Source: Bifidobacterium catenulatum subsp. kashiwanohense JCM 15439 = DSM 21854 (lineage in GTDB: Bacteria > Actinomycetota > Actinomycetes > Actinomycetales > Bifidobacteriaceae). From it: DNA of 64,000 nucleotides. Both the position numbers and the translations under genes were made by a program. The stretch spans positions 2,046,001 through 2,110,000 of the forward strand of contig NZ_AP012327.1 of the NCBI RefSeq assembly GCF_001042615.1, in the 5' to 3' direction. Numbering within the stretch: position 1 is the stretch's first letter; each line of letters opens with the position of its first letter. Positions 4,785 to 64,000 of this stretch are shown here, piece after piece. The notes beneath the pieces are model-generated. The model made no database searches and was not told where the DNA came from. It saw only the letters and a program-made list of their open reading frames with translations.

Positions 4785-6131
4785 TCAATTAGTCTCCTCT
4801 TTAGCCCAAGAATCATCAAATATTAATTGAGAAACCATGTATATAGGAAGATAATCAATGTTTTTCATGCATTCAACATTGGACTCCGCAAAAACAATTC
4901 CTCGTTCCATACCATAGTTAGGTGTGGCAAGTGCCTTGTCGATGGCATGATGGCGTCTATAGCCCTTACCAGATTTCACTTCGACAGGAACCACCCTGCC
5001 GGCTGCACTTTCAACAACAAAATCAAGCTCACCAATCGTATTATTTTTGAAATAGTACAGCGGGAATCCATGCGCACGAAGTTCCTGAGCCACCACATTT
5101 TCGTACAATGCACCGAAATTAATGTCAGTACGATCGTTCAATAAATCGCGTACAACGTTCATGCCACACATGCACGTCAATAGTCCAACATCATTCATGA
5201 ACAGCTTGAACAATCTAGATTGCATCGACAACATCAACGGATACCGCGGCTCCTCAACGTTGTATGAGGGCAATGCGACGCCCGCATCAGCCAGCCATAG
5301 GAAGTTGTTTTCATTACGTTCCATTCTGGCATGCTTATCAAGGCTGGTCACACGGAATCGTTTGTTCTGCTGATTTAATTCACTGGGAATCAAATCGAAA
5401 ATACGGCGGATATTCCGCGCTTGTGTGAGATTCTCTGCATACTGCGAAATATCCTCACGATACCGATTGACGATTGCCTGCTGACGCGCACGCAATGATT
5501 GAATATTGTGCTGCTCCAAAAAAACGGAAACTGCATCCGGCATACCTCCCACCAAAAGATAGTCGTGGAAAAGATCCGTCATTCTTCGATGGACCGCCTC
5601 ATTGACAGACCTTTTCTCCTTGTGGGCCAAACGAACTTCATTCCACACATTTCCCGGAACTTTATTCGCCCAACAATATTCCTCGAAATCCATGGGATAC
5701 ATGGTGATCGAATCCAAAAATCCCACCGGAACTGATTCCACAGATTTTGCTTCAACGCCAAGCAGCGAGCCTGATAGCACAAAATCGTAATCGTCATACC
5801 GAGAAACAAGAAATTTAATCATGGTGACCACGTCACGGCATGTCTGAATTTCATCTAAGAAAATAAGGGTTTTCCCGGGAATTATTTCATCTTGTGCATA
5901 TGCGGAAATGGCAAGAAACAGATCGTCTGCGTTCTGCGCATTGTCCGCCGCTCTCCTCGCGTCAGGCATGTCGATGAAGTTGATTTCCACCATATGCTCG
6001 TAGTTGGTTCTACCAAATTCTTCAACAAGACTGGTCTTTCCCACTTGGCGAGCACCATCGACCAACATGGCCTGCTTGTTTTTATGTTCCTTCCAAAACA
6101 CCAGTTTTTCCATGGCTTTTCGCTTGAACAC
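4785..6131 (-). CDS. AAA_14/DUF4143 family ATPase (first of three)
   Basis: The start is placed at the GTG at 6131. AAGGGGG precedes it, and it gives FKRKAMEKLVFWK, the usual opening of this family. The ATG at 6182 overlaps a TATAAT box and has no ribosome-binding site. The ~448-residue protein has Walker A (GARQVGKT, about 26-33) and Walker B (TLIFLDEIQ, about 88-96). The C-terminal DUF4143 region carries a PD-(D/E)XK-like strand pair, GELDFVVES ... VPVEVKSG (about 368-389). The biochemical role of this family is not established. The D...E-x-K residues look intact here. Four 33-bp-spaced repeats lie directly upstream. Confidence 0.85.
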   Translation of the reverse strand: MFKRKAMEKLVFWKEHKNKQAMLVDGARQVGKTSLVEEFGRTNYEHMVEINFIDMPDARRAADNAQNADDLFLAISAYAQDEIIPGKTLIFLDEIQTCRDVVTMIKFLVSRYDDYDFVLSGSLLGVEAKSVESVPVGFLDSITMYPMDFEEYCWANKVPGNVWNEVRLAHKEKRSVNEAVHRRMTDLFHDYLLVGGMPDAVSVFLEQHNIQSLRARQQAIVNRYREDISQYAENLTQARNIRRIFDLIPSELNQQNKRFRVTSLDKHARMERNENNFLWLADAGVALPSYNVEEPRYPLMLSMQSRLFKLFMNDVGLLTCMCGMNVVRDLLNDRTDINFGALYENVVAQELRAHGFPLYYFKNNTIGELDFVVESAAGRVVPVEVKSGKGYRRHHAIDKALATPNYGMERGIVFAESNVECMKNIDYLPIYMVSQLIFDDSWAKEETN

Positions 6132-6142
6132 AAAACCCCCTT

Positions 6143-6256
6143 GTAACGCAATGAGACGGTTTTTAATCTCGTTTTGTAACATTATAGAACGGTTTTAATG
6201 GGTGATTCGTAACGAAATAGAACCCTCTACAATGATGGTTTAACGAAATGAGATTT
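6143..6256 (-). repeat. Four direct repeats, about 33-bp period, upstream of the first ATPase
   Basis: On the plus strand the units start at 6143, 6176, 6209 and about 6241. They share GTAACGNAATRGAACGGTTTTAAT; units 1 and 2 match best, while units 3 and 4 keep mainly GTAACGAAATAGA. The spacing is three helical turns. Unit 2 contains the only TATAAT on the minus strand, so a bound protein would cover the promoter. An autoregulatory operator is the likely reading. Confidence 0.6.
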
Positions 6257-9954: not shown

Positions 9955-10242
9955 ATGCGGCCAACCACGCAGAAAAACAATGCGAGACCATGCAAAACCA
10001 TCGCCATCGTCGCAGTGATCGCAGTGGTCGCCATCGCGCTCGCAAAACGCTATGAGAGGTCGAGATCTCCGTCCGTGCGTAGAAACTCCATCAGGTTGAG
10101 ATGCCTTACGCCGTCGCGTTGCATTGGCAGCGGGTCCAAACTGAACAGGTATTTCGGATACCCGTCAGCCAGCTTCGTGAACGGACGGAATTCACGCTCC
10201 TCAACATTAGGATCCTGCACACTCATCGACACCTGCACATAG
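9955..10242 (+). pseudogene. N-terminal stump of a membrane or exported protein
   Basis: AGAAAGGAA precedes an ATG. About 31 plausible residues follow, with a basic start and one hydrophobic segment (TIAIVAVIAVVAIALAKR). After that the frame becomes arginine-rich nonsense antisense to the second ATPase gene, whose stop lies at 10050. The good start and sudden loss of protein-like sequence suggest a gene truncated by a rearrangement that brought in the ATPase gene. Confidence 0.3.
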
Positions 10243-11285
10243 GCGTACCGTTCCCGCTTACGCACAATGAAGTCGCACTCCAGCTTACCAATAATGCCCA
10301 CGCTTACCTCGTAGCCTTTCGACCTCAAATGCACGTACAGCGCATTTTCCAAGGCTGGTCCGTAACTCATTCGCGTATCAGTGTTACGCGCGAATCGTAT
10401 GCCAGGATCCGCAAGATAATACTTCTCCCCGCCTCTCAACGACCTGCGCGAACGCAAATCGAATCGCGGGCATTTGTAGAGGACCTTCGCACTCTCCAAC
10501 AGCCGGACATAGTTCGCGAGAGTCTCACGTTTGACCGTCACGCCTTCGCCATGTTTCAGATAGTCGACGATCCCCGACAGATTCGTGGGAGCGGCATAGT
10601 TGTTGATGAGATAGTCCTGCACACGCTGGAAGGTATCGCGGTGACGCACCACTTTGCGTGCGGCTATGTCTTTGTTGAAGATCTGCCCTATGACATCTTG
10701 GATATACATGGCTTTCGCATCAAGATCCTCATATTCCAGCGCTTTCGGAAACCCTCCATAGGTGAGATACTCTTGGAAAATCTGCGACTCCGGCTTTTGG
10801 GGAAGTCCAAGATACTCACGCATGCCGAGATATTCGCTGAACGATAGGGTGAACATTTCCAGCTCAATGTAGCGGCCTGTCAATTTGGTGGCAAGCTCGC
10901 CGGATAGCAGGTATGAATTGGATCCGGTGATGAAAATCGAGCAGTCGCCTTCTTCACGCCATCCGTTAACGATGGCCTCATACCCCTTCACGTTCTGTAT
11001 TTCGTCGATGAACAGGTAACGCGTTGAAGCTGACTTGCCCAGGCTATGTTCAATGACCGCATCAAGCTTTTCCGGAGTGTTCACGCCTTGATATTCTCGA
11101 CGGTCAAGATTGATGTAGCAGATATTGCCTTCCGCAACGCCACGTTCCCGCAGCTCATCCATGACACTGCACAGCAGACTCGATTTTCCGCAACGGCGAA
11201 TGCCTGTGACCACCTTAATGAGTCCCGCATCGTCATAGAACGGACGAAGCTTGGCCAGATAATGCTCTCGACGATACATTTGCAT
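10050..11285 (-). CDS. AAA_14/DUF4143 family ATPase (second of three)
   Basis: The 411-residue protein has Walker A (GIRRCGKS, about 28-35) and Walker B (YLFIDEIQNV, about 90-99). Sensor-like FITGSNSYLLSGELATKLTG comes next, then the winged-helix and DUF4143 regions (from about 200). The C-terminal strand pair reads KLECDFIVRKRERYAYVQVS. The Glu-x-Lys of the PD-(D/E)XK-like motif seen in the other two paralogues is replaced by Gln-x-Ser, so nuclease-like chemistry is unlikely here. GGAG lies 7 nt before the first ATG. Two pairs of inverted repeats lie 20-200 bp upstream. Confidence 0.87.
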   Translation of the reverse strand: MQMYRREHYLAKLRPFYDDAGLIKVVTGIRRCGKSSLLCSVMDELRERGVAEGNICYINLDRREYQGVNTPEKLDAVIEHSLGKSASTRYLFIDEIQNVKGYEAIVNGWREEGDCSIFITGSNSYLLSGELATKLTGRYIELEMFTLSFSEYLGMREYLGLPQKPESQIFQEYLTYGGFPKALEYEDLDAKAMYIQDVIGQIFNKDIAARKVVRHRDTFQRVQDYLINNYAAPTNLSGIVDYLKHGEGVTVKRETLANYVRLLESAKVLYKCPRFDLRSRRSLRGGEKYYLADPGIRFARNTDTRMSYGPALENALYVHLRSKGYEVSVGIIGKLECDFIVRKRERYAYVQVSMSVQDPNVEEREFRPFTKLADGYPKYLFSLDPLPMQRDGVRHLNLMEFLRTDGDLDLS

Positions 11286-11304: not shown

Positions 11305-11354
11305 GTTTTAACGGTGATAAAATTACCCAAAAGAACAACTTTGCCCCGTTAAAA
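11305..11354. repeat. Inverted repeat pair nearest the second ATPase gene
   Basis: Arms GTTTTAACGG (11305-11314) and CCCCGTTAAAA (11344-11354) face each other 20-70 bp upstream of the ATPase start. They share the TTTAACGG core with the stronger pair at 11432-11481, with the same ~39-bp centre-to-centre distance. Confidence 0.5.
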
Positions 11355-11431: not shown

Positions 11432-11481
11432 ATTTAACGGGGTCAAAGTCGTTCAAAGATACAACTTTGACCCCGTTAAAT
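11432..11481. repeat. Perfect 17-bp inverted repeat upstream of the second ATPase gene
   Basis: ATTTAACGGGGTCAAAG (11432-11448) and its exact reverse complement (11465-11481) flank a 16-nt spacer. No T-run follows on the minus strand, so a terminator is less likely than a binding site. Together with 11305-11354 it forms two operator-like pairs about 127 bp apart. Confidence 0.6.
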
Positions 11482-52390: not shown

Positions 52391-52571
52391 ATCTCCTACT
52401 CACTGGAGGAATCTGCCTGTCACCAAGCTTCTCACAGACCAAATTCCTCCAGCCACTGGAACAATCAGTACACCCACAGGCCTTCTACGGTCCGAAAACC
52501 TCCACTCACTGGAGGAAGACCCCCACTAACGGGCCTCCCAGCATCCAAATTCCTCCACCCACTGGAGGATT
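52391..52571 (-). repeat. Four 53-bp-period repeats with CCTCCA-TGGAGG palindrome
   Basis: Copies of CCTCCACYCACTGGAGGA begin at about 52393, 52446, 52499 and 52552, each exactly 53 bp apart. Copies 3 and 4 are perfect hairpins (CCTCCA-CYCAC-TGGAGG); copies 1 and 2 each have one damaged arm. Parts of the intervening sequence also repeat. They fill the gap between the rRNA operon end and tRNA-Ser. Confidence 0.65.
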
Positions 52572-58762: not shown

Positions 58763-59518
58763 ATGAGCAAAAAGATCGCAGTATTGACGGGGGCGGGGAT
58801 TTCCACGTCCGCAGGTATTCCCGACTTCCGCGGACCGGACGGTGTCTGGACCAAGCACCCTGAACAAACGAAAGTGTATGACATCGACGCATTCCTCGCC
58901 AATGAAGAAGACCGCGTGTATTCCTGGCGTTGGCAGAAGGAATCGCCTGTATGGAACGCGCAGCCGGGCACCGCGCACAAGGCGCTCGTCAAACTGGAAC
59001 AGGCTGGACTGCTCACACTGCTCGCCACACAGAATTTCGACGCGCTGCACGAAAAAGCAGGCAATAGCAGCGACGTCATCGTCAATCTGCATGGCACCAT
59101 CGGCACTTCGCACTGCATGAAATGCCATGCAAAATACGACACCGCCGACATCATGGCGAATCTCGACAACGAACCAGACCCACACTGTCATCGCAGACTG
59201 CCATATAGCGGCAATATGCCATGCAACGGACTCATCAAAACCGACGTGGTCTATTTCGGCGAGGCACTGCCGGACGGCGCGCTCGAAAAATCGTATCGCC
59301 TCGCGACGCAAGCCGATGAACTGTGGGTCATCGGATCCACACTGGAAGTCATGCCCGCGGCAAGCATTGTGCCTATGGCCGCACAGTCGGGAGTGCCGAT
59401 CACCATTATGAACATGGGACGCACGCAATATGACCGATTGGCCGACCGGCTGATCCACGACGATATCGCCGTCGCCCTGCCCCAACTCGTCGACGAAACC
59501 ATCGCCGCCGCACAATAA
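58763..59518 (+). CDS. cobB: NAD-dependent protein deacylase (sirtuin)
   Basis: The 251-residue protein has the SIR2 motifs VLTGAGISTSAGIPDFRGPD (about 7-26), ATQNFDALHEKAG (about 88-100) and NLHGT with the catalytic His. It has zinc pairs CMKC and CHRRLPYSGNMPC, and IKTDVVYFGEALP. NFD replaces the common NID, and the second zinc knuckle is longer than usual. It removes acyl groups from lysines using NAD+. No Shine-Dalgarno is visible; TATGCCT lies a few bases before the ATG, so the mRNA may be leaderless. It is divergent from the rRNA operon. Confidence 0.93.
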   Translation: MSKKIAVLTGAGISTSAGIPDFRGPDGVWTKHPEQTKVYDIDAFLANEEDRVYSWRWQKESPVWNAQPGTAHKALVKLEQAGLLTLLATQNFDALHEKAGNSSDVIVNLHGTIGTSHCMKCHAKYDTADIMANLDNEPDPHCHRRLPYSGNMPCNGLIKTDVVYFGEALPDGALEKSYRLATQADELWVIGSTLEVMPAASIVPMAAQSGVPITIMNMGRTQYDRLADRLIHDDIAVALPQLVDETIAAAQ

Positions 59519-59529
59519 ATATGAAAAAT

Positions 59530-59571
59530 GGGATTCTGGATTCTGTAAATAGTAGCGAAATCCAGAATCCC
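59530..59571 (-). terminator. Terminator between cobB and the third ATPase gene
   Basis: GGGATTCTGGATT / AATCCAGAATCCC with a 16-nt loop; ATTTTTCAT follows on the minus strand. A second small hairpin GAATGTAGAA-ATC-TTCTACATTC lies at 59635-59657. Confidence 0.75.
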
Positions 59572-59663
59572 ACAATTTGCGCATCTTCAGTTCTTTGATA
59601 TTTCGCAGGACTGCCGAAGATCTCCATAATTTCTGAATGTAGAAATCTTCTACATTCAAAGAT

Positions 59664-61034
59664 TCATGCACCCAACGCAGTAATGGGAATCACGTAGATG
59701 CCATCTTCGCGTTGGTAGGCGAAATCTCCCACACCAACAAGCACTGCCAAAAATTCCGGAGCACGCACTCGAGACTGCGGATTCTTCAGCAACTTCTCAC
59801 GCAAACGAAGCAGATTCTTCGCAGCATCGTCAACTTTGCTTTGACTGGACTTGATTTCAATGCCAGCCCAACGACCATCAGTCAACTCAATAATGGCATC
59901 GCATTCCAAACCGGAATCATCGTGATAATACCGGACCGGCTCATCACCAATATCAGGCAGCGCACGGGCATACACCAGCAGGTCACGCACGCACAAGTTT
60001 TCAAAAAGGAAACCGAACGTCTGCCAATCCTCAAGCAAAGCACGCGGATTCACGCCAAGCACGGCGGCCGCGATGGAAGGATCGGCGAAATAACGGCGAG
60101 GCTTAGTCTGCAAACGCTTCGGAGAACGTGACGGAGGCACCCAACCGGGCACGCCATCAATCACAAACATGCGCTCGAACATGGCCACATATTCGCTGAT
60201 CGTTCTTGGAGAAATGAAATCTTCAAGGTCTTTCTGAAGGTCTTTCTTCTGGGAATCATTCTGTTTGTCCGCGACATCGGAATCCAAATCCAACTCGGCA
60301 CCATACATATCCAAACCAAGCGTTTTGAACGTGACGGACTGACTCACATTGCGAGACAAAGAACGCAAAAGACGGCGAGCAACTTCAGGATCGCGCCTCT
60401 GCCTAGACACCCCTTCGTTCAGCGTTAGGTGCACATATTCACGAATGAGGATCTGCGCATCGGAAACCGGCAGATTCTGCGCTTCCGGCCATCCCCCTCT
60501 GCACACAAAATCGAACAGACGCTCCGTTGGCGTCTCCACTTTCGCAGGGTTGAAATCGCCTTCAAACAAGGATGACAAACTCACTTCGCCCGTGGAATCG
60601 CCACTTTCAAAAAGCGACATCGGACTCATGCGAACATGCCCGATACGCCCAGCGCCCGTATGCTTCGGGCGCTTGTCATGCATGGGCGTGGAAGAACCGG
60701 TCAGCAGCCACTGCCCCTTCTCCCCCGGCTCGTCGTCAACCTTGTGGCGCACCTCGTCCCAAATGGGCGGAACCAGCTGCCACTCGTCAATAACATGCGG
60801 ACGTTCACCCAACAGCATTAGCGACGGATCGGATTGCGCGGCCATAAGATTGTTACCGCGGTCAACATAAGTGATACTTGCCGCATGCTGACGTGCGGAC
60901 CACGTTTTGCCGCACCATTTCGTTCCTGCGATTTCGACGGCACCGAAAATGCGCATGTAGCGTTCGATCTGCTGATCGACAATACGCGGGCGATAACCTT
61001 GCGGCTTGACCTGCTGATTGCTATTTTTCGTCAT
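59664..61034 (-). CDS. AAA_14/DUF4143 family ATPase (third of three)
   Basis: The ATG at 61034 is preferred over a GTG nine codons earlier. The ~456-residue protein has Walker A (GTKWCGKT, about 37-44) and a Walker B-like PHVIDEWQLV. LLTGSSTPMHDKRPKHTGAG follows in the usual sensor place. The DUF4143 part carries LECDAIIELTDGRWAGIEIK (about 370-389), a D...E-x-K pair like PD-(D/E)XK nucleases. An Asp/Lys-rich insert (about 250-275) is unusual. Five exact 23-bp-spaced repeats lie 170-285 bp upstream. The cellular role is unknown for the family. Confidence 0.85.
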   Translation of the reverse strand: MTKNSNQQVKPQGYRPRIVDQQIERYMRIFGAVEIAGTKWCGKTWSARQHAASITYVDRGNNLMAAQSDPSLMLLGERPHVIDEWQLVPPIWDEVRHKVDDEPGEKGQWLLTGSSTPMHDKRPKHTGAGRIGHVRMSPMSLFESGDSTGEVSLSSLFEGDFNPAKVETPTERLFDFVCRGGWPEAQNLPVSDAQILIREYVHLTLNEGVSRQRRDPEVARRLLRSLSRNVSQSVTFKTLGLDMYGAELDLDSDVADKQNDSQKKDLQKDLEDFISPRTISEYVAMFERMFVIDGVPGWVPPSRSPKRLQTKPRRYFADPSIAAAVLGVNPRALLEDWQTFGFLFENLCVRDLLVYARALPDIGDEPVRYYHDDSGLECDAIIELTDGRWAGIEIKSSQSKVDDAAKNLLRLREKLLKNPQSRVRAPEFLAVLVGVGDFAYQREDGIYVIPITALGA

Positions 61035-61204
61035 ATCGCATCTCGCTTCCATTCTCCGCACTCGTTACGCAACACCTGTTGCATGACTTCCGTACTTCTG
61101 CATAGTTTCCGTACAGTTTCCGTACAGATCCTCGCAGATCCGCACACTTCACAACACTGGCTCAGTTTCGTTGGCATTGCGTCGGTTTTGCTTGGGTGTT
61201 ACCA

Positions 61205-61319
61205 AAATCCGAATTTTTGGATGACAAAAATCCGAATACTTCAACAACAATAATCCGAATTTTCCAACTACCAAAATCCGAATGTTCGGACAACGGAAAT
61301 CCGAATGACGGAACAGCTG
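61205..61319 (-). repeat. Five tandem 23-bp repeats upstream of the third ATPase gene
   Basis: Units begin at 61205, 61228, 61251, 61274 and 61297 on the plus strand, exactly 23 bp apart. Each starts AAATCCGAAT (TAATCCGAAT in unit 3) and continues with a looser TTNNAACNAC part. The array has no spacers, so it is not CRISPR. Iteron-like or operator-like. Confidence 0.75.
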
Positions 61320-61346
61320 GCCGCGCAACAAAGCAACAAAGCAACA

Positions 61347-61407
61347 AAAAGGGTCTTGGAGGGCTTCGCGACAATCAACAATCATCGCAAGGCTTTCCAA
61401 GACCCTT
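61347..61407 (-). terminator. Terminator after ilvA
   Basis: A long hairpin: AAGGGTCTTGGA / TCCAAGACCCTT extended by GCCTTGCGA / TCGCGAAGC, then TTTTTGTTGC on the minus strand. Confidence 0.88.
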
Positions 61408-61440
61408 ATTTGTTAAAGCTGGTACTGAAATCAGAAGAAA

Positions 61441-62706
61441 TCAGTAAATACGCTTAGGCTGGAAACCGGCTTCGCGCATCGCGTCAAGAATGCGGTCGAT
61501 ATGCTCGGGACCGTTGGTCTCGACGGTGACGCCCAAGGAAACCGAATCGGTGTAATGGCTGGAAGCCTTGAACTGGTCATGGTCAAGCGCAATGACATTG
61601 GCACGCTGCTCGGCCAGAATCGTAGCCACCTTGACAAGCTGGCCCGGGGTATCCGGAAGCTCGACCTCAAAGTTCATGATGCGACCGCGGGCGATCATGC
61701 CCTTCTGAATCACCGCACTGATGGAGACGGTGTCCTCATTGCCGCCGGAAAGAATCGGCACCACCACATGCGGGCCCTTCGCCTCGGCGAACTTGCGTGA
61801 GCGCAGGTTGAGATGCTCAAGCGCAGCCAGAGACACGGCGCCAGCAGCCTCGACAACCAGCTTGTGCTTTTCGAGCATGAGCAGGATCATCTCGTTGATA
61901 TCACGCTCGGTCACGGTGACGATGTCATCAAGGAATTCGTTGAGCAGCGCGAACGTGAGATCGCCCGGACGCTTCACGGCAACGCCCTCGGCGGACGTAC
62001 GCACCTGGTCGGCGGCAACCACATGCCCAGCGGCCAGCGAGTTCTTCCACGCGGGACTGCCTTCCGGAATCGCACCAATCACGCGCACTTCCGGCTTGAA
62101 CGTCTTGATGGCAAGTGCCACGCCGGCGCCGAGGCCGCCACCACCCAGCGGTACGACCACATCAGTGACGTTCGGCACGTCTTCGAGAATCTCGAGGCCA
62201 ATAGTACCTTGACCACACAGTACCTCGTAATCGTCAAACGGCGGCACGTAAATCATGCCTTCCTTGTCGCTCAATTCCTGGGCGCGAGCTGCGGATTCGT
62301 CGAATACCTCGCCGTACAGCACCACATCTGCGCCGTACGCCTTGGTGGCGTCAACCTTCAGCGGCGGGGTGATCTGCGGCATGCAGATCGTTGCTTTTGC
62401 GCCGCGTTCGCGAGCCGCATATGCCACACCCTGCGCATGATTTCCTGCGGAAGCGGTGACAATGCCGCGAGCAAGCTGCTCATCGCTCAAGGATGCGATC
62501 TTGTTGTACGCACCGCGAATCTTGAATGATCCGGTAACCTGGAGATTCTCAGGCTTGAGCAGAATCTCATGTCCAGTCATCTCGGACAGCACCTTGGACG
62601 GAATGATTTCCGTATGGCGTGCAGTGCCCTCGAGCCGTTCGGCGGCTAGTTTCAGTTCAGCTGCGTGATTGCGCTGCAATGCTTTGAGAACCTCGTTTTG
62701 TTCCAT
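61441..62706 (-). CDS. ilvA: Threonine dehydratase (deaminase)
   Basis: The PLP enzyme converts threonine to 2-oxobutanoate, the first step toward isoleucine. The 421-residue protein has the PLP-lysine motif VTGSFKIRGAYNK (about 58-70), TASAGNHAQGVAYAA (about 84-98) and the glycine loop VVPLGGGGLGAGVALA. The C-terminal ~75 residues form one ACT domain (FEVELPDTPGQLVKVATILA), so this is the short form related to the catabolic/biosynthetic YgkP-like group. No Shine-Dalgarno is seen. TACAAT lies 7 nt before the ATG, indicating a leaderless mRNA. Confidence 0.95.
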   Translation of the reverse strand: MEQNEVLKALQRNHAAELKLAAERLEGTARHTEIIPSKVLSEMTGHEILLKPENLQVTGSFKIRGAYNKIASLSDEQLARGIVTASAGNHAQGVAYAARERGAKATICMPQITPPLKVDATKAYGADVVLYGEVFDESAARAQELSDKEGMIYVPPFDDYEVLCGQGTIGLEILEDVPNVTDVVVPLGGGGLGAGVALAIKTFKPEVRVIGAIPEGSPAWKNSLAAGHVVAADQVRTSAEGVAVKRPGDLTFALLNEFLDDIVTVTERDINEMILLMLEKHKLVVEAAGAVSLAALEHLNLRSRKFAEAKGPHVVVPILSGGNEDTVSISAVIQKGMIARGRIMNFEVELPDTPGQLVKVATILAEQRANVIALDHDQFKASSHYTDSVSLGVTVETNGPEHIDRILDAMREAGFQPKRIY

Positions 62707-62863
62707 GAGCGTTATTGTAAGCGCACGTCTGCCGAAACTGCCTGATCATGCGGATTTTGCCATCAAAAGTGAGATTATCTGCGCAAATACTTGCAAAATT
62801 GAGATTGCTCATAAACGCAATCGGAGGCAATCAGAAATAATCGCAGTACAACAATCGCAATAA

Positions 62864-62905
62864 AAAGCGTTCGCACGATTCCGTGATGAATCGTGCGAAC
62901 GCTTT
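62864..62905 (-). terminator. Terminator after the GH13 gene
   Basis: AAAGCGTTCGCACGATTC / GAATCGTGCGAACGCTTT, an 18-bp perfect stem with a 6-nt loop and TTATTG beyond. Confidence 0.9.
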
Positions 62906-62931
62906 GCAGAGAGTTTATAGGGAAAGATCGA

Positions 62932-64000
62932 TTAGAGCTGAATCACGACTCCCTCCCAACGAGCAAGCTCGCCACGAGCGATCGATTTCACGCCATGCAC
63001 GGCATCATAGGTGCTGAGCAGTATTTGCGATTCCGCGACGCCATCGCCGAGCAGCTCCGCCACTTCTCCCGGCAGGCCGGCGGATTTATCGGTGAGGTTG
63101 ACGACAACAAGAATCGTATCGTCACCGTTGGTGCGAGTGAAGGCATATACCTGCTCGTCATCGGCAGCAAGCAGATTCCACTCGCCCGTCGCGACGGTCG
63201 CGTTGTTGTGGCGCATGGCGATGAGCTTCTTGTAGAAGCCGTACACGGAATCAGGATCGTCGAACTCCTCGGCGGCGTTGATCTCCACATGGTTCGGATT
63301 CACGCCGATCCACGGTTCCGCCGCCGCATCGGGCGCGGTGAAGCCGGCGTACCTGGAGGCGTCCCACTGCATCGGCGTGCGCGCATTGTCGCGTCCGATG
63401 AGCGCGAGGGCCGCCATCATGGATTCCGGCGACTGGCACCTGGCCTCCTCCACACGCTGGCGGTAGGCGTTGATGGCCTCCAAGTCGCGGTACTGGTCGA
63501 GGCTGGTGAAGTGGGCGTTGGTCATGCCCAGCTCCTCGCCCTCGTAGATGTACGGGGTGCCGCGGTGCATGTGCAGCAGCATGCCGAACGCCTTGGCGCC
63601 CAACTCGCGCGACTCACGGTCAGAGTCGTCGCCCCAACGGGACACGACACGCGGCTGGTCATGGTTGCAGAAGAACAGGCTGGCCCAACCGGCATCCTTC
63701 ACGGCCTCCTGCTGCGCGGCTAGGCGAGTGCGCAGGTTCCTGACTTCGAACGGCACGGTGTTCCACTTGGAACCTTCCTGGTCGATGCCCACATGGTCGA
63801 AGAGGAACAGCATATCAAGCTCACCGTTCTTCGGATCGGTGATGAACTCGTTGCGGTCCGGAGTGATGCCCGGCGCCTCGCCGACGTTCATGTAGCCCTC
63901 GCGTCCCTCGAACACCTCGCGACGCATTTCAGCAAGAAACTCGTCGATGCGCGGACCGTCGGAACACCATGAGAACGGGCTGGAATAGCCTTCCTCACCA
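62932..64000 (-). CDS. GH13 alpha-glucosidase (oligo-1,6-glucosidase type), 3' part
   Basis: The frame is open to the window edge, so the N-terminal part is outside. The visible ~355 residues include YSSPFSWCSDGPRIDEFLAE and EGYMNVGEAPGITPD with the catalytic Glu (VGEA). FFCNHDQPRVVSRWGDD carries the conserved NHD transition-state Asp. GTPYIYEGEELGMTN and DNARTPMQWDAS are typical of bacterial alpha-glucosidases and oligo-1,6-glucosidases. A C-terminal beta domain ends in WEGVVIQL. It cuts alpha-glucosidic bonds in malto- or isomalto-oligosaccharides in the cytoplasm, a common bifidobacterial function. A strong terminator follows. Confidence 0.93.
   Translation of the reverse strand, partial: GEEGYSSPFSWCSDGPRIDEFLAEMRREVFEGREGYMNVGEAPGITPDRNEFITDPKNGELDMLFLFDHVGIDQEGSKWNTVPFEVRNLRTRLAAQQEAVKDAGWASLFFCNHDQPRVVSRWGDDSDRESRELGAKAFGMLLHMHRGTPYIYEGEELGMTNAHFTSLDQYRDLEAINAYRQRVEEARCQSPESMMAALALIGRDNARTPMQWDASRYAGFTAPDAAAEPWIGVNPNHVEINAAEEFDDPDSVYGFYKKLIAMRHNNATVATGEWNLLAADDEQVYAFTRTNGDDTILVVVNLTDKSAGLPGEVAELLGDGVAESQILLSTYDAVHGVKSIARGELARWEGVVIQL

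What the first reader, a model, noticed from the sequence alone, without database searches (positions are those of the whole stretch)
61205..61319. Five exact 23-bp-period repeats before the third ATPase gene
AAATCCGAAT recurs at exactly 23-bp steps five times with a looser second half. The regular step places copies a little over two helical turns apart, as in iterons. It lies between ilvA's terminator and the ATPase gene, so the ATPase is the only obvious target.
Basis: seen in the sequence. Interest (0 to 1): 0.6.

Follow-up and report, generated by a model that had tools for sequence, protein, structure and literature searches.

The report
ATPase gene's helix-phased self-binding repeats
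The repeats are probably docking sites that a suspected virus-defence protein uses at its own gene's control region; many relatives carry arrays with different sequences but a fixed spacing of about two (or, in a sister group, three) turns of DNA.

Summary
The array is real: five units at exact 23-bp steps (61205-61319), the strongest 15-60-bp period in the window and the only such array in its genome. The gene beside it (59664-61061, minus strand) encodes an AAA_14 + DUF4143 protein matching PADLOC's defence candidate PDC-S01. Array and gene form a segment absent from four relatives. In 76 non-identical homologue loci the best upstream period was 22/23 bp or two units (44-46) in 75; 56 passed the threshold at 22/23, against 0 of 174 other genes in those loci. 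The motif changes with the protein, not the host. A paralogous subfamily, including the first ATPase of this window, uses 32/33 bp, one helical turn more, in Bifidobacterium and on some plasmids of other phyla. Best explanation: each unit binds one protomer of the ATPase itself, probably by its winged helix, at its own promoter (autoregulation). Binding and autoregulation are inferred. Limits: orphan arrays without ATPase, two loci with a second array behind the gene, several distant members without arrays, a third subfamily without a consistent direct repeat, no promoter recognised here. The papers searched describe nothing like it. New variant of a known kind.

The parts
61205..61319 (-). 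Array of five 23-bp units, starts 61205, 61228, 61251, 61274, 61297; read with the gene the core is ATTCGGATTT
59664..61061 (-). ATPase gene: AAA_14 + DUF4143, PDC-S01-like; possible starts GTG 61061, ATG 61052, ATG 61034
61062..61138 (.). About 77 bp between array and gene, absent from the locus of the 99%-identical homologue in G040; holds TTTCCGTAC repeats
61346..61410 (.). Inverted repeat (26-nt arms, 13 nt between) on the ilvA side, possible ilvA terminator
   Evidence: not accepted by the scan
59519..61438 (.). Segment with ATPase gene and array; absent from G019 (same species), G027, G029, G043, where the sirtuin gene and ilvA are near neighbours
6141..6251 (-). Four-copy direct repeat (steps 31, 33, 33 bp, counted by eye) before the first ATPase gene (subfamily B)
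4824..6128 (-). First ATPase gene, AAA_14 + DUF4143, PDC-S01-like, subfamily B
11433..11480 (.). Inverted repeat (TTTAACGGGGTCAAAGT and its complement, by eye) before the second ATPase gene (10053-11285, minus strand, subfamily C); a partial second copy at about 11306-11354

Best explanation
The array is a binding platform for the ATPase encoded next to it. Each 23-bp unit holds one recognition core, so that several protomers (mostly 3-5 units) sit side by side on nearly the same face of the DNA and contact each other. The winged-helix part probably reads the core. The array lies at the promoter end of the gene, so occupancy sets the ATPase's own expression (autoregulation), as would suit a potentially harmful ATPase-nuclease of a candidate defence family. 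Shown here by sequence: the array, its recurrence in front of homologous genes, a motif that tracks the protein, two rulers one helical turn apart. Inferred: binding by the ATPase, an oligomer on DNA, promoter control, any defence role.
For: Recurrence: best period (15-60 tried) 22/23 or 44-46 in 75 of 76 non-identical homologue loci, 56 of 76 at 22/23 with score >=12, versus 0 of 174 other genes in the same loci; with one representative per 90% identity, 65 of 65 and 47 of 65. The locus's own core in 21-24-bp phase: upstream in 83 of 88 loci, within 400 bp downstream in 2, inside the gene or farther downstream in 0. Position: last core starts a median 54 bp before the start codon; 3-5 copies in 88 of 101 loci. 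Motif tracks protein: Mantel r 0.59 (97 loci), 0 of 2000 permutations; for same-genome paralogues the nearest protein relative elsewhere had the more similar motif in 22 of 22 ordered comparisons from 9 genomes that I picked by contig name. Ruler tracks subfamily: 32/33 best in 28 of 29 subfamily-B loci; 23 or 46 in 29 of 30 subfamily-D loci, 24 in one; 32/33 in plasmid B members from Vibrio, Acinetobacter, Criblamydia, Prevotella. Present or absent together with the gene in five genomes. Model pLDDT 92.7; its helices 260-288 and strands 292-316 fit a winged helix (my reading). Motif distance is predicted by the winged-helix (0 of 1000 permutations as high) and helical (0 of 1000) parts, not the nuclease part (883 of 1000).
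Against: No binding or expression data. No sigma-70-type promoter was found near this array (0 found, 0.7 expected by chance), and in this genome about 77 extra bp separate array and gene. Orphan arrays without ATPase exist. Two loci (L112, L116) have a second array with the same core behind the gene, L123 probably too (by eye). Distant members without a clear array: Thermus (2), Runella, Treponema succinifaciens, Acidithiobacillus, Emticicia, Aliarcobacter, and Segatella, Ruminococcus, Bacteroides cellulosilyticus in subfamily B. The sliding-window correlation also peaked outside the winged helix (17-31, 181-207, 362-385), and the AAA part had a weak effect (14 of 1000).
Confidence: 0.62

Rival explanations
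1. The ATPase binds the array, but the main purpose is not expression control: the array is an assembly or holding site for a STAND-like ATPase-nuclease that is released or armed on infection.
For: Fold neighbours include CED-4 and NLR structures (Z 11.0-12.7); PDC-S01 match; D379, E393, K395 invariant in 65 homologues; several units where one operator might do.
Against: A plain operator would give the same position; no phage data; the closest folds are archaeal ATPases 2qen and 2fna.
Confidence: 0.17
2. A different, host-encoded regulator binds the array.
For: No direct proof that the ATPase is the binder; orphan arrays exist.
Against: Paralogues in one genome carry different motifs that match those of their protein relatives elsewhere (22 of 22); ruler depends on the ATPase subfamily; only array of its kind in this genome.
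Confidence: 0.07
3. The array marks the end of a mobile element, like the repeated transposase sites at Tn7 ends (comparison recalled).
For: Gene and array form a presence/absence segment; orphan arrays could be left ends; two loci have arrays with the same core on both sides of the gene.
Against: In 88 loci tested only 2 have a second phased array within 400 bp behind the gene; only AAA_14 and DUF4143 above cut-off. A target-site duplication was not searched for.
Confidence: 0.06
4. The array works as RNA or is a CRISPR-like array.
For: Regular units next to a nuclease-like gene.
Against: Only 13 bp between ten-base cores; no Rfam match in 59000-63000; 22/23 or 32/33 steps fit DNA helix phase.
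Confidence: 0.03
5. Neutral tandem duplication by slippage.
For: Copy number differs between close Collinsella loci (five in L058 and L060, four in L062, counted by eye).
Against: Cores are kept while the second halves differ; fixed ruler across phyla; 0 of 174 control genes.
Confidence: 0.03

Closest known systems
RptR, autorepressor of a phage-defence island (PMC12255303; abstract and passages seen)
   Same: Three direct repeats in its own promoter, two of them overlapping the -10 box, bound by the regulator; controls a defence locus
   Different: RptR is a separate 9-kDa repressor with 9-bp repeats around a 6-bp palindrome; here the putative effector ATPase would be the binder and units are 22/23 or 32/33 bp apart
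PDC-S01, PADLOC defence candidate (PMC12988326; passages seen)
   Same: The window ATPase matches PDC-S01 models; the paper gives an ATPase fused to the PD-(D/E)-X-K superfamily
   Different: No upstream repeats in the passages seen; 'promoter', 'direct repeat' and 'autoregul' do not occur in its main text
Iterons of Rep-type replication initiators (recalled)
   Same: Direct repeats of about 22 bp bound by the protein of the adjacent gene
   Different: Chromosomal here, no replication gene beside it; two rulers by subfamily; AAA_14 protein rather than a Rep
PABY2304 (2qen) and SSO1545 (2fna), archaeal AAA+ ATPases
   Same: Closest solved folds: Z 15.1 (rmsd 4.4, 255 aligned) and 13.4 (4.8, 252), model residues 8-327 and 9-326
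   Different: 13-14% identity; the DUF4143 nuclease-like end is not covered by these matches

Membership tests
PDC-S01 (PADLOC) | Match to a PDC-S01 profile | tested here: met
   PDLC04790 E 2.4e-58, best stretch residues 22-251
PDC-S01 (PADLOC) | Anti-phage activity | not testable with these tools
   Validation pending for most PDCs according to PMC12988326
AAA_14 / DUF4143 proteins | Both Pfam domains over their cut-offs | tested here: met
   DUF4143 97 bits (cut-off 28.1), AAA_14 44.5 (27)
PD-(D/E)XK nucleases | Conserved D and ExK residues | tested here: met
   D379, E393, K395 invariant in 65 sequences; the motif shape is recalled; activity and the fold of this part were not tested
STAND NTPases | NB-ARC-like fold with winged helix | tested here: inconclusive
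   CED-4 and NLR matches Z 11.0-12.7, below the archaeal ATPases
Autorepressors with direct-repeat operators (RptR-like in working) | Repeats overlap the promoter of the regulator's own gene | tested here: inconclusive
   Median 54 bp from last core to start codon; promoter not located in the window
Autorepressors with direct-repeat operators (RptR-like in working) | Protein binds the repeats | not testable with these tools
   Needs gel shift or footprint
Iteron-controlled replicons | Replication initiator encoded beside the repeats | tested here: not met
   Adjacent gene has only AAA_14 and DUF4143 above cut-off
CRISPR arrays | Repeats separated by unique spacers of about 30 bp (recalled) | tested here: not met
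   23-bp units, 13 bp between ten-base cores

The most novel reading that the evidence does not exclude
A very large family of candidate defence ATPase-nucleases carries its own helix-phased DNA platform, with a subfamily-specific ruler of two or three turns; the protein assembles on it as an ordered oligomer that both limits its own synthesis and keeps the nuclease in check, and infection releases it. Each gene with its array is a self-contained unit with private recognition, so that many paralogues can coexist in one genome without cross-talk.
Probability: 0.25. Interest if true: 0.9.

Novelty: new variant of a known kind. Interest (0 to 1): 0.72.

Why it matters
A passage of PMC12988326 calls PDC-S01 the fourth most common defence across all prokaryotes, with validation pending for most such candidates. 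A predicted DNA ligand for many of these genes, readable from sequence, makes the family testable: what it binds, how it oligomerises, how it is controlled. The one-turn step between the two rulers is a strong structural constraint on any protein-DNA complex.

Tried and rejected
RNA reading: no Rfam match. Promoter and terminator scan: nothing at the window array. Naive -10 search over 101 loci: 59 had a hexamer with at least 5 of 6 matches, but positions scatter and at least 8 are the repeat core itself; not used as proof. The sliding-window search for specificity residues gave several peaks; the domain regression leans to winged helix and helical part, but its permutations do not correct for ancestry. 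ATPase remnants near orphan arrays: only short weak hits, best E 6e-4 over 28 residues in G060. Viral contigs: 6 homologues, 5 scored, all 23 (L246 has the same match and range as L243 and was not scored). Viral scan with the subfamily-B protein: nothing. PDB and NCBIfam sequence searches: nothing. Literature: DUF4143 in 1 paper (one passage seen, a table of expression changes in Thermus, PMC4406477); PDC-S01 in 3 (passages of two seen); COG1373 (recalled as this family's COG) in 7 (passages of two seen); searches for upstream repeats of such ATPases listed nothing relevant. One search was useless because AAA_14 was read as AAA14. Preprints are not held.

Rows dropped before counts: L076 (no upstream DNA); L076, L124, L011; arrays under score 15 (85 kept) or 11 (97 kept); L011, L124, cores with too many N and contig ends (88 kept of 103); L163 and L184 not entered, L173, L176, L185, L189 unusable; L256; L290, L298, L304 not entered, L292 unusable (26 subfamily-C loci scored). 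One search keeps the window gene twice (L011, L095). One search holds three near-copies of earlier loci (L161, L162, L164) and one fragment with a stop (L188). L247/L248 and L257/L258 are near-copies. In one search only periods 22 and 23 were offered, so its period counts prove nothing. Plasmid loci were picked by me for spread: 11 of 60 listed of 155 records, 10 of 60 of 389, 9 of 40 of 60. One search had minus-strand loci unturned and is superseded.

Full report
Observation. The window holds five units at exact 23-bp steps, 61205-61319. The core AATCCGAAT is identical in all five; the longer AAATCCGAAT in four. It is the best-scoring 15-60-bp period of the 64 kb and the only such array in the 2,337,234-bp genome.

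Neighbourhood. The gene on the minus strand (59664-61061) has AAA_14 and DUF4143 and matches PADLOC PDC-S01. The AlphaFold2 model from a 65-sequence alignment has mean pLDDT 92.7. Best solved neighbours are the archaeal ATPases 2qen and 2fna, then plant NLR and CED-4 structures; the nuclease-like end was not tested by that search. D379, E393 and K395 are invariant in the alignment, as expected for a PD-(D/E)XK site (motif recalled).

Presence and absence. In G019 (same species), G027, G029 and G043 the sirtuin gene and ilvA lie close together without ATPase or array; G040 has both, with the 120 bp around the array identical. Whether the segment was gained or lost was not tested. Between G000 and G040 the gene differs at 9 codons synonymously and 5 non-synonymously. 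G040 lacks about 77 bp found in the window between array and gene.

Recurrence. Homologues came from genome contigs (80 loci) and Bifidobacterium genomes (30 loci; 76 of 112 genomes have a match). With orientation corrected, the best period among 15-35 was 22 or 23 in 76 of 79 and 29 of 30 loci; score 13 or more in 65 of 79 (64 of them at 22/23) and 28 of 30 (27 at 23), against 0 of 2380 shuffles. Downstream regions reached it in 3 of 78 and 5 of 30; three of the latter had period 23, and two of these three (L112, L116) proved to be arrays with the gene's own core, the third (L123) probably too. With periods 15-60 open, 76 non-identical loci gave 22/23 or 44-46 in 75; 56 had score 12 or more at 22/23. 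Of 174 other genes in the same loci, 0 did (3 if 44-46 are allowed). With one representative per 90% identity: 65 of 65 and 47 of 65. The locus's own core occurs in phase upstream in 83 of 88 loci, within 400 bp downstream in 2, inside the gene or farther downstream in 0. Arrays mostly have 3-5 copies (88 of 101) and the last core starts a median 54 bp before the start codon.

Own genome. Of its 10 DUF4143 genes, 4 have a 23-bp repeat upstream (two copies only in L005) and 2 a 33-bp repeat at score 13 or more; the first ATPase of the window has a weaker 33-bp array.

Motif follows protein. Sorted by the protein tree, cores include TTCGGATTT (Bifidobacterium), TTCGGAAAAT, CGCGGAAAGTGACAAC, CCTCGAAAAT, CCTCTATTTT and GGCGTAAAAT. 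Motif and protein distances correlate (r 0.59, 0 of 2000 permutations). For paralogues in one genome, the nearest protein relative in another genome had the closer motif in 22 of 22 ordered comparisons from 9 genomes, which are not independent. More distant Actinomycetota members keep the period with unrelated motifs: 20 of 24 scored loci at 22/23, 14 with score 12 or more, three of them near-copies of earlier loci and one a fragment. Of 11 plasmid homologues, four had clear 23-bp arrays (Bacteroides ovatus and uniformis, Collinsella, Prosthecochloris), six weak ones at 22-23 or 44-46 (in Mycobacterium riyadhense another period, 43, scores higher when more upstream DNA is used), one (Aliarcobacter) none. 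Five of five scored viral-contig homologues had 23.

Two rulers. A paralogous subfamily (B) in Bifidobacterium has 32/33 bp as best period in 28 of 29 loci; 23 had score 12 or more, all at 32/33. On plasmids, 5 of 9 B members had 32/33 as best period (Prevotella, Vibrio, Acinetobacter, Criblamydia; Parabacteroides weakly); Vescimonas had 42 with 33 second; Segatella, Ruminococcus and Bacteroides cellulosilyticus were unclear. Subfamily D has 23 or 46 in 29 of 30, 24 in one. Of 10 plasmid hits to the D protein, Tateyamaria and Novosphingobium showed 22, B. finegoldii 33, Marinobacter a weak 22, six none. Subfamily C has no consistent period (26 scored); 6 have a best period of 39-41, some of these with palindromes. 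In a 77-protein tree B, C and D have support 0.99-1.0 and A 0.80; B includes Prevotella and A includes two Bacteroides proteins. At 10.5 bp per turn the rulers are 2.1-2.2 and 3.05-3.15 turns: one turn apart. The first ATPase of this window belongs to B and has a four-copy array of about 33 bp; the second belongs to C and has inverted repeats.

Mechanism. A unit whose sequence changes with the adjacent protein while its helical spacing stays fixed within a subfamily is best explained as a row of sites for that protein. The position suggests control of its own promoter. The domain regression puts the signal in the winged-helix and helical parts rather than the nuclease part, with the caution that ancestry is not removed. 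RptR offers a tested precedent for direct repeats in the promoter of a defence locus (PMC12255303, abstract and passages seen).

Results against. TCGGATT-N16-TCGGATT occurs in 24 of 112 Bifidobacterium genomes (reversed control 0 of 112). All 13 genomes with an ATPase of at least 70% identity have it beside the gene. Others have arrays with no ATPase in the 8-12 kb read around them, less on a side where a contig ended (G001, G004, G043, G065 and shorter ones); some single hits (G021, G023, G078, one in G060) look like chance in coding DNA. The orphans may be relics or sites acted on in trans. No promoter was recognised at the window array.

Novelty. The library searches found no description; preprints and most subscription journals were not covered.

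Noticed in passing
61062-61138: About 77 bp with TTTCCGTACAG repeats between array and gene, absent in G040 and flanked by a 14-bp near-repeat (61055-61068 and 61139-61152).
   Followed up: partly
L231, L232, L233, L234 (G043, G065, G004, G001): Orphan 23-bp arrays of about three to four copies and no ATPase nearby; in G001 and G043 upstream of metabolic-looking genes (by eye).
   Followed up: partly
L112 and L116, first 130 bp behind the gene's stop codon: A second three-copy array with the gene's own core behind the gene, same orientation; L123 similar by eye.
   Followed up: partly
L158 4104-4245 (G027): Inverted repeat with arms of about 31-34 bp, MITE-like, in the same sirtuin-ilvA gap where the window has the ATPase segment.
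   Followed up: no
L299, L300, L302: Subfamily C members with palindromes such as AATCAGTTATAACTGATT at about 40-bp steps before the gene.
   Followed up: partly
L049, L050, L067: Arrays alternating CGGAAAAT- and CGGATTTT-type cores in 23-bp phase, hinting at shape rather than base reading of the A/T tract.
   Followed up: no
52434-52569: A 53-bp-period repeat, the strongest in the window after the array.
   Followed up: no
L202 1806-2388 and L218 1792-2735: Repetitive, nonsense-like reading frames downstream of two orphan arrays (G004, G065), perhaps another repeat family.
   Followed up: no
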